64,000 nt of DNA from Baekduia soli. Its GTDB lineage: Bacteria; Actinomycetota; Thermoleophilia; Solirubrobacterales; Solirubrobacteraceae. The first letter of the stretch is position 1. Every line of letters starts with the position of its first letter. A program made the position numbers and the translations under genes. The stretch is taken from the NCBI RefSeq assembly GCF_007970665.1, contig NZ_CP042430.1:3224001-3288000 (forward strand), read 5' to 3'. Under the pieces are notes generated by a model. That model was not told the origin of the DNA. It saw nothing but the letters and a program-made list of their open reading frames with translations, and did not search any database. Below, piece after piece: positions 49,657 through 55,871 of this stretch.

Positions 49657-50586
49657 ATGGCCCGAATCCCGACCAACATCTCGGATCACATCGGCAACAC
49701 GCCGATGGTCCGCCTCAGCCGGCTCGAGCCCGAGGGCGTCGAGCTGTACGGCAAGCTCGAGGCCTACAACCCCGGCGGGTCGGTCAAGGACCGCATCGGC
49801 ATCGCGATGATCGAGGCCGCCGAGGCCGAGGGGCGCATCGAGCCCGGGCGGACGACGATCGTCGAGGCGACCTCGGGCAACACCGGCATCGCGCTCGCGT
49901 TCGTCTGCGCCGCCAAGGGCTACGAGCTGGTGATCTTCCTGCCCCAGGGCATGTCGCGCGAGCGCGAGGCGCTGCTGCGGCTCTACGGCGCGCGCGTCGA
50001 GATCGTCGAGTCGATGGGCGGCATGGACGAGGCCGTCCAGGCCGCGCGCCGTGCCGGCGGCTCCGGCGACGCGTTCCTGCCCGACCAGTTCTCCAACCCC
50101 GCCAACCCCGAGGCCCACCGCCTGGGCACCGGGCCGGAGATCCTCCGCGCGATGGAGGACCGCGTCGACGTCTTCGTCGCCGGCGTGGGGACGGGCGGCA
50201 CGATCACCGGGGTCGGCCAGGCGATCAAGGCCGTCAACCCCAAGGCCCGGATCGTCGCCGTCGAGCCCGCGTCCTCGGCCGTGCTCAGCGGGCGTGCCGC
50301 CGGGCCGCACCGCATCCAGGGCATCGGGGCCGGCTTCGTACCCTCCGTGCTGGACCGCGAGATCATCGACGAGGTGCTGCCGTGCACCGACGACGACGCG
50401 ATCGCCACCGCCCACCTGGCCGCCGCCCGTGAGGGCGTGCTGGCCGGGATCTCCTGCGGCGCCGCGCTGTGGGGCGCCATCCAGGTCGGCCAGCGTCCCG
50501 AGTCCAAGGGCAAGCGGATCGTCACCGTCCTGCCCGACTCGGGCGAGCGCTACATCTCGGCGCCGTTCTTCGCGCCCTCGGCCTGA
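49657..50586 (+). CDS. cysK: Cysteine synthase (O-acetylserine sulfhydrylase)
   Basis: The 309-residue PLP enzyme has the Schiff-base Lys in YNPGGSVKDRIGIAM, EATSGNTGIALAF, and the phosphate loop VAGVGTGGTITGVG. It makes cysteine from O-acetylserine and sulfide. Together with cysE downstream it forms the standard cysteine pathway; the two can form a complex in other bacteria. The gene's 3' end overlaps a convergent hydrolase gene by 37 bp. Confidence 0.95.
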   Translation: MARIPTNISDHIGNTPMVRLSRLEPEGVELYGKLEAYNPGGSVKDRIGIAMIEAAEAEGRIEPGRTTIVEATSGNTGIALAFVCAAKGYELVIFLPQGMSREREALLRLYGARVEIVESMGGMDEAVQAARRAGGSGDAFLPDQFSNPANPEAHRLGTGPEILRAMEDRVDVFVAGVGTGGTITGVGQAIKAVNPKARIVAVEPASSAVLSGRAAGPHRIQGIGAGFVPSVLDREIIDEVLPCTDDDAIATAHLAAAREGVLAGISCGAALWGAIQVGQRPESKGKRIVTVLPDSGERYISAPFFAPSA

Positions 50587-51163
50587 GCCAGCACGGCGAC
50601 CTCTCCGAGCGCCCAGGAGCGCATCGCCGGCCACGGGCCGTAGCCCGCGTCGACGTTGAGGTGGCCCGCGCCGGGCAGCAGGTCGACCTCCAGCCCCAGG
50701 GGCCGGCCCCACTGCTCGGGGGCGCCGGGGCCGGGGCAGTAGTCGTCGTCGTCGGAGCAGACCAGGCGCGTGTGGCCCGCGGCGGCGTCGACGGCCGCCC
50801 GGTCGGCGCCCGTCGGGTAGAAGCCCGCCAGCTCGGGGATCGCCGCGCCCGGGCACGGCGGCGCGACGAGGACCACGCGGTCCACGCGATGGCGCGGCGC
50901 GATCCGGGCGGCCTCGCGCAGCCACAGCACACAGCCCAGCGAGTGGCAGATCACGATGCGCTCGCCCGGTCCGGCGGCCAGGCGGCGCAGCTCGCCCTGC
51001 AGCGCCGCGCCCCAGCGGTCCGGGCACGGGACGTCGCAGGCGGGCAGGTCGGGGTACTGGACGTGGGCACCGGCGGCCTGCAGCCGTCCCGCCAGCCAGG
51101 TCTGCCAGTGCTCGGGGCCGAGCCCTGCCAGCCGTGGAGGATGAGCGCCCGGAGCCCGGTCAT
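50550..51163 (-). CDS. RBBP9/YdeN-type alpha/beta hydrolase (one-base frameshift inside)
   Basis: The corrected 204-residue protein begins MTGLRALILHGWQGS and continues PEHWQTWLAGRLQAAG, then YPDLP, VICHSLGCVLWL (nucleophile Ser in HSLG), and LLPGAGHLNVDAGYG (His). The frame breaks at the G4 run 51114-51117; one extra base restores it. Without it only ~16 conserved residues remain in frame with the start. This is a small serine hydrolase of unknown substrate. Its start is 22 bp from the divergent cysE start. Confidence 0.75.
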
Positions 51164-51172
51164 CGCGTCGAG

Positions 51173-51179
51173 TACGGTA
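51173..51179. promoter_or_regulatory. Overlapping divergent -10 boxes (cysE / hydrolase)
   Basis: TACGGTA holds TACGGT on the plus strand, 7 nt before the cysE ATG at 51186. It also holds TACCGT on the minus strand, 10 nt before the hydrolase ATG at 51163. Confidence 0.6.
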
Positions 51180-51185
51180 GTCCGG

Positions 51186-51928
51186 ATGCTCGGCTTCGGC
51201 ATGGTGCGGCGCGTGACCCGGGAGCTGCGGCTGGACATCGCCGCCGCCCACGAGCGCGATCCCGCGGCGCGCGGCGTGTCCTCGCTGGAGATCCTGCTCG
51301 AGTGGCCCGGCGTGCAGGCCGTGCTGGCCCATCGCGTCGCGCACGCCCTGCACGACAGCAACGTCCCGATCGCTCCGCGCGCCATCGCCTACGTCGCGCG
51401 CGCGCTCACGGGCGTGGAGATCCACCCGGCGGCCAACGTCGGCGACGGCCTGTTCATCGATCACGGCATGGGCGTCGTGATCGGCGAGACCGCCGACATC
51501 GGCGACGACGTGACGCTGTACCAGGGCGTGACGCTCGGCGGCACGGGCTTCGCGACCGGCAAGCGCCACCCGACGATCGGCGACAACGTCACGGTCGGCT
51601 CGGGCGCCAAGCTGCTGGGGCCGATCGAGGTCGGCCACGGCGCCAAGGTCGGCGCCAACTCGGTGGTCATCAGCGACGTGGCGCCCCACAGCACGGTCGT
51701 GGGCAACCCGGGCCACGTCGTCCGCGTCGACGGCCGGCGGCCCGAGGGCCCCGACGCCGACTGGATCCACCTGCCCGACCCGGTGGCCGACGCCATCCGG
51801 GAGCTGTCGGGCCGCCTCGGCGACCTCGAGCGCCGCCTGGACGCGATGGACGCCGCCCCGCCGCGCAGCCGCCGGCCGAGGTGCGCCGGCTCAGCTCGGT
51901 CCGCGGCCGCAACCCCGCCGGCGGCTGA
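51186..51928 (+). CDS. cysE: Serine O-acetyltransferase (one-base frameshift near the C-terminus)
   Basis: The N-terminal helices include SSLEILLEWPGVQAVLAHRV. The left-handed beta-helix includes GVEIHPAANVGDGLFIDHGM and GVVIGETADIGDDVTLYQGV, with acetyl-CoA and serine site His residues. It acetylates serine for CysK. After ~220 residues the frame breaks at the C4 run 51856-51859; one added C gives a tail ending RNPAGG at TGA 51928 (247 residues). The uncorrected frame runs on to 52328 through the neighbour. Confidence 0.92.
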
Positions 51929-51977
51929 CGCACCCTCGCCCAGGGGGCTCGGGTGCGTTCGGCGGCTCGCGTTCGCC

Positions 51978-52888
51978 CTAGTAGTAGACGCTGCGGCAGC
52001 GGTGCCGTGGGCGCGCCTTGAGCTCGGGCGCCTGGCCGCGCGTCCACAGCCACATGTCCAGCACGCGGGCCGGCACGCCCAGGCGCGCCGACAGCAGCTC
52101 GCAGGCGTGCAGGGCGCACGCGCGGATCTCCCGCTCCTCGCGGCCGGGGGGGAGCAGGTGCCCCGCGTCGATGTGGGCCGCCAGCTCGGCCGCGTAGACG
52201 AGCACGCCGTCGCAGCGCAGGACGTGGGGACGAGGTTGTCGGCGAAGATCGTCAGGCGGTCGAGGTCGTCGAAGCGCGTGACGCCCGCCAGGTGCAGGTC
52301 GTTGCCCGCGATCTGGGCGCGCTTGTAGAACCCGCGGTCGTCGTAGAGCGCCATGCCGCCGGCCAGCAGGGTCGCCAGGCGCTCGGCCGAGCCCGACGCC
52401 CGGGCGATCAGGTCGAGAACCGACCGCGGCCCGAGGAAGCGCCCGAGGTCGCGCAGGGCCTGGCTGTAGAGCGCCATGAGCTCGTGGTCGGCGGGTTGGC
52501 CGAGGATCGCGGCGAGCGCGTCCGTGCGCATCCCGCGCAGGTCGGCCTCGGTCCACGGCCCCTGGGCGCGGAAGTGGTCGGCGAGGTTCCAGGCCACCGT
52601 GAAGTACCCCGAGACGGTGCGCCCCGTGGCGGGGTCGGTGCGCTTGCGCAGCGTCGGGAACCAGCCCGACCCGAAGTTGATGGTGTCCAGCGCCAGCGTG
52701 TACATCGCCACGTCGGCCGGCGAGCCCTCGAGGTAGTGGCGCTGCGGGTCCAGCCCCAGGTCGGTGACGACGGCCTCGCCGCCCGGCGCGGCGTCGTAGA
52801 CGGCCAGGCGTGCCTCGTCGATGCGGACCGAGCGGGCCTCGGCGGCCATCCGCGCGCAGTAGGCGCGCACGTCGTCGGTCAGCCCCAT
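51978..52888 (-). CDS. Queuosine-salvage-type protein (DUF2419), one-base frameshift inside
   Basis: The N-terminal part contains ALDTINFGSGWFPTLRKR, GYFTVAWNLADHFRAQGPWT, and FYKRAQIAGNDLHLAG, then FADNLVP. At the run 52226-52229 the frame breaks; one extra base continues HVLRCDGVLVYAAELAAHID to CRSVYY and the TAG at 51978 (303 residues). These are hallmarks of the DUF2419/Qng1 family, queuosine-5'-monophosphate N-glycosidases. It would release queuine for reuse in tRNA. ATG at 52888 follows TACGCT by 9 nt. Confidence 0.8.
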
Positions 52889-52919: not shown

Positions 52920-53519
52920 TCAGCCCTGTAGGCGCCCGAAGTCCAGCGTGACCATCATCGCGTCGGGGCCGGCCCCGTCGGGCGCGGCGTGCGTCAGGCC
53001 GATGCCGAGGTCGCGGTACGTCGGGTCCAGCAGGATCGCGCGGTGCGGCGGGCTGTTGAGCAGGGCGGTCATGATCTGGCCGGGCTCGGCGGCGGTGCCC
53101 GAGCCCCACGCCAGCGCCTCGCCGAGGAACCAGGCGTGGACGCCGTCGAGGTAGCCCGTCGCCTGCACGCGGCTGGCCAGCGGCGGCCCACCGGCGCGGT
53201 CGTGGGCGAAGTAGTGGCGCCGGGCCATGTCGTCGGAGTGGCCGGTGGCGGCCCGGCGCAGGTGGCGCTCGGCCCGCACGCGGGGCAGCCCGTGGCTGCG
53301 GCGGACGCGGTTGACGAGGCACAGCAGGGTGCGGCGCGCGGTGCCCGTGGTCAGGCTCGCCGCCCGCGCGGCGGCGTGCGGGCAGGAAGCCTCGGCGGCC
53401 GCCGCCGGGGATGAGAAGGCGGCGGCCGCCAAGAGCAAGCTTAGGGCGAGCCCGCAGGCACGCCGCGTCGTGGTTCGCCGCCGGCCGGGGACAGCCGGGG
53501 CCTGTGAGGCTCCTCCCAT
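52920..53519 (-). CDS. Secreted CAP-domain (SCP/PR1-like) protein
   Basis: The 199-residue precursor has a signal peptide (CGLALSLLLAAAAFSSPAAA after an Arg-rich n-region). A CAP domain follows: CLVNRVRRSHGLPRVRAERH, AATGHSDDMARRHYFAHDRA, LAWGSGTAAEPGQIMTALLN, SPPHRAILLDPTYRDLGIG. GGAGG lies 11 nt before the ATG at 53519; two further ATGs at 53537 and 53540 are alternatives. Bacterial CAP proteins are extracellular with unclear function. It is divergent from pcrA. Confidence 0.85.
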   Translation of the reverse strand: MGGASQAPAVPGRRRTTTRRACGLALSLLLAAAAFSSPAAAAEASCPHAAARAASLTTGTARRTLLCLVNRVRRSHGLPRVRAERHLRRAATGHSDDMARRHYFAHDRAGGPPLASRVQATGYLDGVHAWFLGEALAWGSGTAAEPGQIMTALLNSPPHRAILLDPTYRDLGIGLTHAAPDGAGPDAMMVTLDFGRLQG

Positions 53520-53648: not shown

Positions 53649-55871
53649 GTGCCGTCCGACACCGCCGCCGATCAGCGCGTCGCCGATCTCCTCGAGGGGC
53701 TGAACCCGCCCCAGCGCGACGCCGTGATCCACGGTGACGGACCGCTGCTCATCCTCGCAGGCGCGGGGTCCGGCAAGACGCGGGTGCTGACGCATCGCGT
53801 CGCCTACCTCGTGCACACGGGGCGCGCCCGCGCCGGCGAGATCCTGGCGATCACGTTCACCAACAAGGCCGCCACGGAGATGCGCGAGCGCGTCGGCCTG
53901 CTGCTCGGCCACTCGACGCGGGCCATGTGGGTCATGACCTTCCATGCGGCGTGCGGGCGCATCCTGCGCGCCGAGGCGCCGAGGCTGGGCTACACGCGCC
54001 AGTTCACGATCTACGACCAGGCCGACTCGCGCCGCCTGGTCAAGCGCTGCCTCGACCAGCTCGACGTCGACCCCAAGCGCTTCACGCCCGCCGCCGTGCA
54101 GTCGCAGATCTCCGGCGCCAAGAACCAGCTGCGCGACGCCGAGGCCTACGCGCAGCTCGTCGGCAGCTACTTCGAGCAGACCGTCGCCGAGGCCTACAGG
54201 CTCTACGAGCGCGAGCTGCACCGCATGAACGCCATGGACTTCGACGACCTCCTGGTCAACGTGGTCAACGTGCTGCAGCTCTTCCCCGAGGTGCAGGCGC
54301 GCTACGGCGCCACCTTCCGCCACGTGCTCGTCGACGAGTACCAGGACACCAACCACGCCCAGTACCGGATGCTGCAGCTCCTGGCGGGCGGGCACCGCAA
54401 CCTGTCGGTCGTCGGCGACGACGCCCAGTCCATCTACAGCTTCCGCCACGCCGACATCCGCAACCTCCTGGACTTCCAGGACGACTTTCCGGACGCCAAG
54501 GTCGTCAAGCTCGAGCAGAACTACCGCTCGACGCAGACGATCCTGTCGGCGTCCAACGCGCTCATCGCCAACAACCGCGGCCAGCTGCACAAGACGCTGT
54601 GGACCGACCAGGGCGACGGAGACCCGATCGTCATCCGCGAGCTCGACGACGAGCACGCCGAGGCGCGCTACGTGCTCGGCCGGGTCCAGCAGCACGTCGA
54701 CGGGGGCGGCTCGCTGAGCGAGATCGCGTGCTTCTACCGGACCAACGCGCAGTCCCGGGTCCTGGAGGACACGCTCGTGCGCGCCGAGATCAGCTACCAG
54801 GTCATCGGCGGCACGAAGTTCTACGAGCGCGCCGAGATCAAGGACGCCATGGCCTACCTGACGGTCCTGGCCAACCCGGCCGATGCGATCGCCTTCGGCC
54901 GGATCGCCAACTCCCCCAAGCGCGGCATCGGCCAGACCTCGCTGGCGCGGGTCCTCGGCCACGCCGACGCCTCGGGCATCACGGTGTGGGAGGCGGCGGC
55001 CGATCCCGCGGGCGTGCCCGGGCTGGGCACCGCGGCCGTCCGGTCGCTCGAGCGCTTCATGGCCACGATGGAGGGCCTGCGCGAGCGCGCCGCCGACGGA
55101 GTGCCGATGGGCGACCTGCTCGAGGCGGTCCTGCATGAGTCGGGCTACCTCGACGCCCTGGAGGCCGAGCGCACGATCGAGGCCCAGGGGCGCACGGAGA
55201 ACCTGCAGGAGCTCGTCGAGGTCGCCCGCGAGTTCGACGCGACGATGCAGGCCGCCGAGGACCGGCTCGACCTGTTCCTTCAGCAGATCGCGCTCGTGGC
55301 CGACACGGACTCGCGCAAGGACGAGTCCGGGCTCGTGACCCTCATGACCCTGCACAACGCGAAGGGCCTCGAGTACCCCGTGGTGTTCATGATCGGCTGC
55401 GAGGAGGGCATCTTCCCGCACTCGCGGTCGATCGACGAGGGCACGCTCGAGGAGGAGCGGCGCCTCTGCTACGTCGGCATGACGCGGGCCATGCGCTCCC
55501 TGACGCTCACGCACGCGCGGCGGCGCAACGTCTTCGGCTCCGCCGCCTACGGCCTGCCGAGCCGCTTCCTGGCCGAGCTCCCGCCCGACCTGGTGGACCG
55601 CGAGGGCGCGCTGAGCGCGTTCGCCTCCGGGGCGGCGGCCGACCGCGGCACGCGCCCGCGGGCGATGTCCTCCTGGGCGGCGATGCGCAGCGACGCGCCG
55701 GCGCCGGCCGGAGGCGAGGGCTTCCGCGTGGGCGACGACGTGCTCCATGCGGCCTTCGGCGAGGGCGTGGTCACCGGCATCGAGCCGGGCGGGGTGGTCA
55801 CCGTGCGCTTCGCCGGCGACGGCAGCGAGCGCAAGCTCATGGCCGAGTACGCGCCGATCGAGAAGAGGTAG
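53649..55871 (+). CDS. pcrA: ATP-dependent DNA helicase UvrD/PcrA
   Basis: The 740-residue SF1 helicase has all motifs: Q-motif LNPPQRDAV, Walker A LAGAGSGKTRVLTHRVA, Ia ITFTNKAATEMRERV, II LVDEYQDTNHAQY, III VVGDDAQSIYSFRHAD, IV LEQNYRSTQTIL, V LMTLHNAKGLEYPVVF, and VI RRLCYVGMTRAMRSL. A Tudor-like C-terminal domain (DDVLHAAFGEGVVTGIEPGG) follows. It acts in DNA repair and transcription-coupled processes. Confidence 0.95.
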   Translation: MPSDTAADQRVADLLEGLNPPQRDAVIHGDGPLLILAGAGSGKTRVLTHRVAYLVHTGRARAGEILAITFTNKAATEMRERVGLLLGHSTRAMWVMTFHAACGRILRAEAPRLGYTRQFTIYDQADSRRLVKRCLDQLDVDPKRFTPAAVQSQISGAKNQLRDAEAYAQLVGSYFEQTVAEAYRLYERELHRMNAMDFDDLLVNVVNVLQLFPEVQARYGATFRHVLVDEYQDTNHAQYRMLQLLAGGHRNLSVVGDDAQSIYSFRHADIRNLLDFQDDFPDAKVVKLEQNYRSTQTILSASNALIANNRGQLHKTLWTDQGDGDPIVIRELDDEHAEARYVLGRVQQHVDGGGSLSEIACFYRTNAQSRVLEDTLVRAEISYQVIGGTKFYERAEIKDAMAYLTVLANPADAIAFGRIANSPKRGIGQTSLARVLGHADASGITVWEAAADPAGVPGLGTAAVRSLERFMATMEGLRERAADGVPMGDLLEAVLHESGYLDALEAERTIEAQGRTENLQELVEVAREFDATMQAAEDRLDLFLQQIALVADTDSRKDESGLVTLMTLHNAKGLEYPVVFMIGCEEGIFPHSRSIDEGTLEEERRLCYVGMTRAMRSLTLTHARRRNVFGSAAYGLPSRFLAELPPDLVDREGALSAFASGAAADRGTRPRAMSSWAAMRSDAPAPAGGEGFRVGDDVLHAAFGEGVVTGIEPGGVVTVRFAGDGSERKLMAEYAPIEKR

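What the first reader, a model, noticed from the sequence alone, without database searches (positions are those of the whole stretch)
51978..52888. Queuosine-salvage enzyme (DUF2419) in an actinobacterium
The corrected protein matches the DUF2419/Qng1 family, known mainly from eukaryotes and scattered bacteria. It suggests queuine recycling instead of de novo queuosine synthesis.
Basis: partly seen in the sequence, partly recalled or inferred. Interest (0 to 1): 0.5.

Follow-up and report, generated by a model that had tools for sequence, protein, structure and literature searches.

The report
Queuine-recycling enzyme in a soil actinobacterium
The stretch holds a gene, broken by one apparent frameshift, for an enzyme that most likely frees the vitamin-like base queuine for reuse in transfer RNAs; the enzyme is common in this bacterial order, and the genome also carries a second, intact relative of it next to a gene for a likely nutrient-binding protein.

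Summary
On the minus strand, 52888-51978, lies a Q_salvage (PF10343; DUF2419, Qng1) gene; both halves pass Pfam's cut-off on either side of a one-base frameshift near 52229. Same-genus genomes have intact syntenic orthologues, so the shift may be a sequencing error. Residues matching K199 and D231 of the solved enzyme are present; a homologue's model matches it (Z 34.7).

This genome has tgt; QueA, QueF, QueG, QueH and the transporter QPTR were not detected. In 121 genomes of the order Q_salvage is in 79, TGT in 101, QueF, QueG and QueH in 0. All 31 TGT pockets read have glycine at the preQ1-type valine.

Two corrections: in this order the gene is normal, and the genome holds a second, intact copy. 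That paralogue's clade (11 rows) is in every row divergently paired with an NMT1/THI5-like lipoprotein, a candidate for the unknown uptake route. Substrate and transport are inferred, not shown. Against: seven genomes have Q_salvage without TGT. The window gene is a new member of a known kind.

The parts
51978..52888 (-). Q_salvage (DUF2419/Qng1-type) gene, broken by one frameshift
52229..52888 (-). N-terminal part, 220 aa; holds NFGSGWFPTLRKR (N71 on), KRAQI (K189) and FADN (D217)
51978..52235 (-). C-terminal part, 85 aa and stop, in the other frame
52225..52235 (-). site of the one-base frameshift, in a short C run; same-genus relatives have an open frame here
51186..51928 (+). cysE-like serine acetyltransferase (hexapeptide), convergent neighbour; its tail reads in a shifted frame after about 51878
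49657..50583 (+). cysK-like PLP enzyme, part of the conserved neighbourhood
50553..51155 (-). small serine hydrolase, neighbour kept in G001 and G006
52923..53438 (-). CAP-domain protein upstream on the same strand; kept in G001 and G006
53649..55868 (+). UvrD/PcrA-type helicase (named by sequence, not scanned), neighbour kept in several genera

Best explanation
The gene encodes a Qng1-type N-glycosylase that hydrolyses queuosine 5'-monophosphate (or queuosine), left from tRNA turnover or taken from outside, to free queuine. The cell's single TGT, with a queuine-type pocket, then puts queuine directly into position 34 of tRNAs with GUN anticodons. The organism does not make queuosine de novo. 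The frameshift is most likely a base-calling or assembly error, or else a very recent lesion; a second intact paralogue exists in the same genome. Shown here: family, key residues, fold of a close homologue, tgt, the undetected pathway genes, and constraint on both halves. Inferred: the substrate, the reaction in the cell and the direction of the salvage.
For: PF10343 over cut-off in both halves. A profile of 45 relatives finds in the PDB only queuosine salvage chains at E <= 0.001 (best 2e-55; human 3.4e-39). The AlphaFold model of the Paraconexibacter homologue (mean pLDDT 95.5) aligns with 7uk3 at Z 34.7, rmsd 2.3, 294 residues, 31% identity. N70, K188 and D216 of that homologue are invariant in 45 rows. 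tgt is in the genome. In 121 genomes QueF, QueG and QueH gave 0 matches and QPTR 0 over its cut-off; the control genomes rang for each (E. coli for QueF, QueG and QPTR; Thermotoga maritima and Lactococcus lactis for QueH). 31 of 31 TGTs read have G at the V233 place. Q_salvage and TGT co-occur: 72 both, 7 Q_salvage only, 29 TGT only, 13 neither (Fisher p 0.0037, not corrected for kinship).
Against: The motif is NFGSGWFP where the solved enzymes have NFCFW or NFSFW (human), so another substrate is possible. Seven genomes have Q_salvage and no TGT match; one, G046, is a single contig at 93% completeness. 29 genomes have TGT and no Q_salvage. 16 genomes have a QueA-like protein and all 16 also have Q_salvage, which a pure queuine route does not explain; the two scanned score far below NCBIfam's QueA cut-offs. 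The TGT pocket is GG[STA]LG, not the GG[LS][AS]G that PMC11570991 gives for queuine salvagers. QPTR has three matches below the cut-off, the best in G001 of the same genus (25.7 bits, cut-off 27.2). The window copy is broken as sequenced.
Confidence: 0.8

Rival explanations
1. The window copy is a genuine, recent pseudogene, and the intact second copy (G000:C1:3485310-3486023) now does the work. This can hold together with the main explanation of what the gene family does.
For: The shift is present in the assembly, a single contig at 95.55% completeness; the second copy is one open frame with the family residues. A relative of another family, G103, also has its Q_salvage match in two adjacent pieces.
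Against: The part after the shift is the better conserved one (84-88% identity, dN/dS about 0.2). A second shift of the same sort lies in the cysE tail, which points to the sequence rather than to the gene. G001, G005 and G006 have open frames at this locus.
Confidence: 0.25
2. The NFGSGW branch is an N-glycosylase of the Qng1 fold that acts on another modified or damaged nucleotide, not on queuosine.
For: NFGSG in 85 of 90 rows read (rows include repeats, and the scan pattern favoured this motif) against NF.FW in the solved enzymes; seven genomes with Q_salvage and no TGT match.
Against: Co-occurrence with a queuine-type TGT in an order without QueF, QueG or QueH matches; K199 and D231 equivalents invariant; whole-length fold match.
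Confidence: 0.12
3. Chance similarity, or an antisense shadow of the long plus-strand open frame that covers the C-terminal half.
For: A plus-strand open frame runs 50469-52328.
Against: Two Pfam matches in order, PDB matches and syntenic intact orthologues.
Confidence: 0.01

Closest known systems
Qng1 / DUF2419 queuosine salvage protein (PDB 7u07, 7u1o, 7u91, 7uk3, 7u5a, 7ulc; human 7ugk, 8dl3). That the bacterial chain is from Sphaerobacter thermophilus is recalled, not from a call
   Same: Whole-length fold, K199 and D231 equivalents, KRAQI, FAD..(V)P.VL, C-terminal P.HR
   Different: NFGSGWFPTLRKR in place of NFCFWGEPRW; about 31% identity; no activity data
Second Q_salvage copy of the same genome (G000:C1:3485310-3486023, P0002) and its clade
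   Same: Same family and key residues; 51-54% identical to the genus orthologues of the window gene
   Different: Separate clade (support 99/93); has lost the KR of RKR after the NFGSG loop; divergently paired with an NMT1/THI5-like lipoprotein
Direct queuine salvage as in Chlamydia trachomatis (PMC11570991, passages read)
   Same: TGT with queuine-type pocket; none of the searched preQ1-to-Q enzymes found
   Different: No QPTR over the cut-off here; a Qng1-type enzyme is present

Membership tests
Qng1 / Q_salvage (PF10343) | Pfam model over the curated cut-off | tested here: met
   Both halves over 25 bits
Qng1 / Q_salvage (PF10343) | Residues matching K199 and D231 of the solved enzyme | tested here: met
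   K189 and D217 of the read-through protein
Qng1 / Q_salvage (PF10343) | Qng1 fold over the whole length | tested here: met
   Tested on the Paraconexibacter homologue (65% identical to G001's orthologue), not on the broken window protein: Z 34.7, rmsd 2.3, 294 residues
Qng1 / Q_salvage (PF10343) | NF.FW motif of the solved members (not taken here as defining) | tested here: inconclusive
   NFGSGWFP instead; its role was not checked on coordinates
Qng1 / Q_salvage (PF10343) | Release of queuine from queuosine 5'-monophosphate | not testable with these tools
   Needs an enzyme assay
Direct queuine salvage pathway | tgt in the genome | tested here: met
Direct queuine salvage pathway | TGT pocket of queuine type (G at the V233 place) | tested here: met
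   GGSLG in this genome, G in 31 of 31 read; the fuller motif GG[LS][AS]G of PMC11570991 is not matched exactly; place assigned by motif
Direct queuine salvage pathway | Absence of QueA, QueF, QueG, QueH | tested here: met
   No match in this genome; genome 95.55% complete
Direct queuine salvage pathway | Absence of QueC, QueD, QueE | not tested
   Not searched
Direct queuine salvage pathway | Precursor transporter QPTR (PF02592); known in some salvagers only, so not taken as defining | tested here: not met
   0 of 121 over the cut-off, three weak matches below it, none in this genome
Direct queuine salvage pathway | QrtT/QueT-type ECF transporter (PF12822); likewise not defining | tested here: inconclusive
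   This genome 21.5 bits, cut-off 30.7; 14 of 121 over the cut-off

The most novel reading that the evidence does not exclude
The order takes up queuosine or queuine by a route that uses no known queuosine-precursor transporter: an NMT1/THI5-like binding lipoprotein, divergently paired with a specialised Qng1 paralogue (copy B), captures the compound and shares the permease and ATPase of another ABC system; copy B, which lost the KR after its NFGSG loop, frees queuine from the imported form, while copy A (the window gene) recycles the cell's own queuosine 5'-monophosphate.
Probability: 0.3. Interest if true: 0.6.

Novelty: new member of a known kind. Interest (0 to 1): 0.38.

Why it matters
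Many bacteria predicted to salvage queuosine precursors lack any known transporter (PMC11130926, passages read). This order fits that description: queuine-type TGT, Qng1-type enzymes, no QueF, QueG or QueH matches in 121 genomes, no QPTR over the cut-off. The conserved pair of a binding lipoprotein and a Qng1 paralogue gives a concrete and cheap candidate to test, and the two paralogues allow a comparison of substrate preference within one genome.

Tried and rejected
Considered and dropped: chance or antisense shadow; a copy peculiar to this genome (79 of 121 sampled genomes of the order have the family); a de novo queuosine pathway. The QueA-like proteins of 16 genomes were weighed as evidence for synthesis; the two scanned score 158.6 and 167.4 bits against a cut-off of 324, so they are called QueA-like only; the other 14 were not scanned with NCBIfam.

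A fixed pattern for the TGT motif found nothing and was replaced by an alignment. Clustering of neighbours by stop-to-stop frames merged antisense frames and was replaced by a simple codon-based gene caller, which did not call the broken window gene. In one search the printed FAD motif is sometimes another FAD of the protein, and was not counted.

Paper searches: 'Qng1' with 'queuosine' and 'DUF2419', listings only except PMC11130926, PMC11570991 (passages) and PMC3660597 (abstract); 'queuosine' with 'Solirubrobacter' (0 papers); queuine with ABC transporter, substrate-binding protein and salvage (1 paper, listing only); 'queuosine' with 'Actinobacteria' and 'Qng1' (0); 'queuosine' with 'Thermoleophil' (3, listing only). 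The 2023 structure paper and the 2019 salvage paper are not held; what is said of them comes from PDB entry titles and from other papers.

The G040 lipoprotein lies near a contig end whose last bases read as low-complexity sequence, so its partner could not be judged.

Full report
What is there. The finding's coordinates hold one gene on the minus strand, 52888 to 51978. The first 220 codons are one open frame and the last 85 lie in another. Each part alone passes Pfam's cut-off for Q_salvage, PF10343 (50.7 and 48.9 bits, cut-off 25), and the two tile the model from position 8 to 285. Solved queuosine salvage proteins are the best PDB sequence matches of each part.

The frameshift. G001 and G006, of the same genus, have the orthologue as one open frame (302 and 304 aa) at the same place, between cysK/cysE and a pcrA-type helicase; G005 of the genus has a 299 aa copy at that locus. 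The G001 and G006 proteins align to the window in two frames that meet near 52229, in a short C run. Identity to G001 is 76% before the shift and 84% after it, dN/dS about 0.37 and 0.20. The cysE tail, about 350 bases away, also needs a frame change to match these relatives. Two such shifts so close together suggest the sequence rather than the gene, but without reads a very recent pseudogene cannot be excluded.

Family and fold. The read-through protein has K189 and D217 where the solved enzyme has K199 and D231; these positions were changed in entries 7u5a (K199C) and 7ulc (D231N) (titles). A profile of 45 relatives finds only queuosine salvage chains in the PDB at E <= 0.001 (best 2e-55, human 3.4e-39). 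The predicted structure of the Paraconexibacter antarcticus homologue of the window gene (mean pLDDT 95.5, pTM 0.92) aligns with 7uk3 over 294 residues, rmsd 2.3, Z 34.7, 31% identity; the next fold class, archaeal 8-oxoguanine DNA glycosylases, starts at Z 14.9. A model of the Paraconexibacter second copy (mean pLDDT 94.2) has the same top matches. The window protein itself, being broken, was not modelled. One difference recurs: NFGSG with FADN, where the solved enzymes have NF.FW and FADY. In one search, 85 of 90 rows (repeats included) show NFGSG; the exceptions are a Latescibacterota row with NFSSG, one truncated row, and three Actinomycetota rows from outside the order with FADYIVPV. Rows outside Actinomycetota with NFGSG come from Chloroflexota, Myxococcota and Bipolaricaulota. 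The scan used [AT][IV]NFGSGW and FADN[LF][VL]PH as patterns (383 confirmed relatives, best 80 kept), so its loci are biased towards this type.

Pathway. This genome has one tgt and no match for QueA, QueF, QueH, QueG or QPTR; QueC, QueD, QueE, QueK and QueL were not searched. In 121 sampled genomes of the order: Q_salvage 79, TGT 101, QueA-like 16, QueF, QueG and QueH 0 each, QPTR 0 over its cut-off with three matches below it, the best at 25.7 bits (cut-off 27.2) in G001. The ECF family PF12822, which holds QrtT/QueT among others, is over its cut-off in 14 of 121 and below it in this genome. The TGT genes of the 31 genomes whose loci searches returned were read, of 101 with TGT: 31 of 31 have G at the place of V233, as GG[STA]LG. 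The V-to-G change enlarges the pocket for queuine (PMC3660597, abstract); queuine salvagers typically have GG[LS][AS]G and E. coli GGLAVG (PMC11570991, passages), so the agreement is in the G and not in the whole motif, and the place was assigned by the motif. Co-occurrence: 72 genomes with both, 7 with Q_salvage alone, 29 with TGT alone, 13 with neither (Fisher p 0.0037; kinship not corrected, several genomes incomplete). This fits direct queuine salvage. PMC11130926 (passages) states that most gut Actinomycetota are predicted queuine salvagers and that many predicted salvagers lack a known transporter.

How common. In a sample of 396 genomes of the phylum, 13 are over the cut-off: 8 of this order, including G000 itself, and 5 from elsewhere. 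So the family is rare in the phylum and usual in this order.

The second copy. The genome has an intact paralogue at G000:C1:3485310-3486023 (289 aa). In a tree of 114 rows the window gene groups with the G001 and G006 orthologues (100/99). The second copies of G000, G001, G006, G072 and G013, those of Solirubrobacter, and one MAG form a clade of 11 rows (99/93). Ten of the 11 lie beside an NMT1/THI5-like protein, and the eleventh, of G013, was seen to do so when more flank was fetched; all are divergent. In one search no such protein was found in the held flanks of any other locus with Q_salvage; flanks vary from almost none to about 8 kb, and 105 of 138 loci, repeats included, had at least 1,200 bases upstream of the open frame. 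The partner scores 142-154 bits for PF09084 in the four checked and 149 in G013. It starts with a hydrophobic leader and a cysteine like a lipobox (by eye), and no permease or ATPase was seen directly beside it.

How far the transport idea goes. Relatives of the partner occur in 118 of 121 genomes, so the protein family is not specific to copy B. Three settings were seen: beside copy B; near a gene of the deazaflavin (FO) synthase type, directly adjacent in L236, L238, L245 and L247 and two or more genes away in L239, L240 and L244 (type checked by scan for L236 only); and in an operon with ATPase and permease (L237). A solo binding protein that borrows the permease of the third setting is possible, but nothing here shows its ligand. 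Twelve genomes have the partner above 440 bits, and ten of these have copy B next to it (the G048 partner has one internal stop in its match). Of the other two, G020 (64% complete) has it beside a glyoxalase-family gene and no Q_salvage match, and that of G040 lies near a contig end.

Results against the reading. Seven genomes keep Q_salvage without a TGT match (G028, G046, G050, G056, G071, G098, G104; completeness 75, 93, 90, 85, 90, 84 and 88%); G046 is a single contig. 29 have TGT without Q_salvage. All 16 QueA-like genomes have Q_salvage (p 0.0011), which is unexplained; in G017, of the Solirubrobacter genus, the QueA-like gene lies about 2.4 kb from copy B.

Verdict. For this order the gene is ordinary. 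The more interesting part is the second copy with its partner lipoprotein, which is a lead and not a demonstrated system. I found no paper on it in the searches, nor in the text of PMC11130926 searched for NMT1, PF09084 and substrate-binding; the library holds open-licence papers only, and supplementary tables could not be read.

Noticed in passing
L236:7631-8650 (in G000), L238, L245, L247; less close in L239, L240, L244: NMT1/THI5-like binding proteins lie next to or near FO (deazaflavin) synthase-type genes in several genera, a parallel to the pair with the second Qng1 copy.
   Followed up: partly
L090:9796-10761, L092:9022-10080, L093:8714-9862: QueA-like proteins sit in a conserved row with a short-chain dehydrogenase, a response-regulator-like and a sensor-like gene; all 16 genomes with one also have Q_salvage. 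The two scanned are well below NCBIfam QueA cut-offs.
   Followed up: partly
window 51860-51928: The cysE tail reads in a shifted frame compared with G001 and G006, a second apparent frameshift close to the first.
   Followed up: partly
G046 and G071 (genus g25): These genomes have Q_salvage but no TGT match and no NMT1/THI5-like relative at E 1e-20, while G030 and G059 of the same genus have TGT.
   Followed up: no
G019, G053, G065 (genus g14); G075, G078, G081, G084, G087 (family f4): TGT and Q_salvage are missing together in these lineages, while G039 of g14 has both; looks like joint loss of queuosine use.
   Followed up: no
G103:C1:101899-102607: The Q_salvage match of this relative also falls into two adjacent pieces, perhaps another frameshift.
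   Followed up: no
L135 (CAMCUD010000023.1): Record titled Bifidobacterium breve, but its Q_salvage protein is 61% identical to the Solirubrobacterales query; the title is probably wrong.
   Followed up: no
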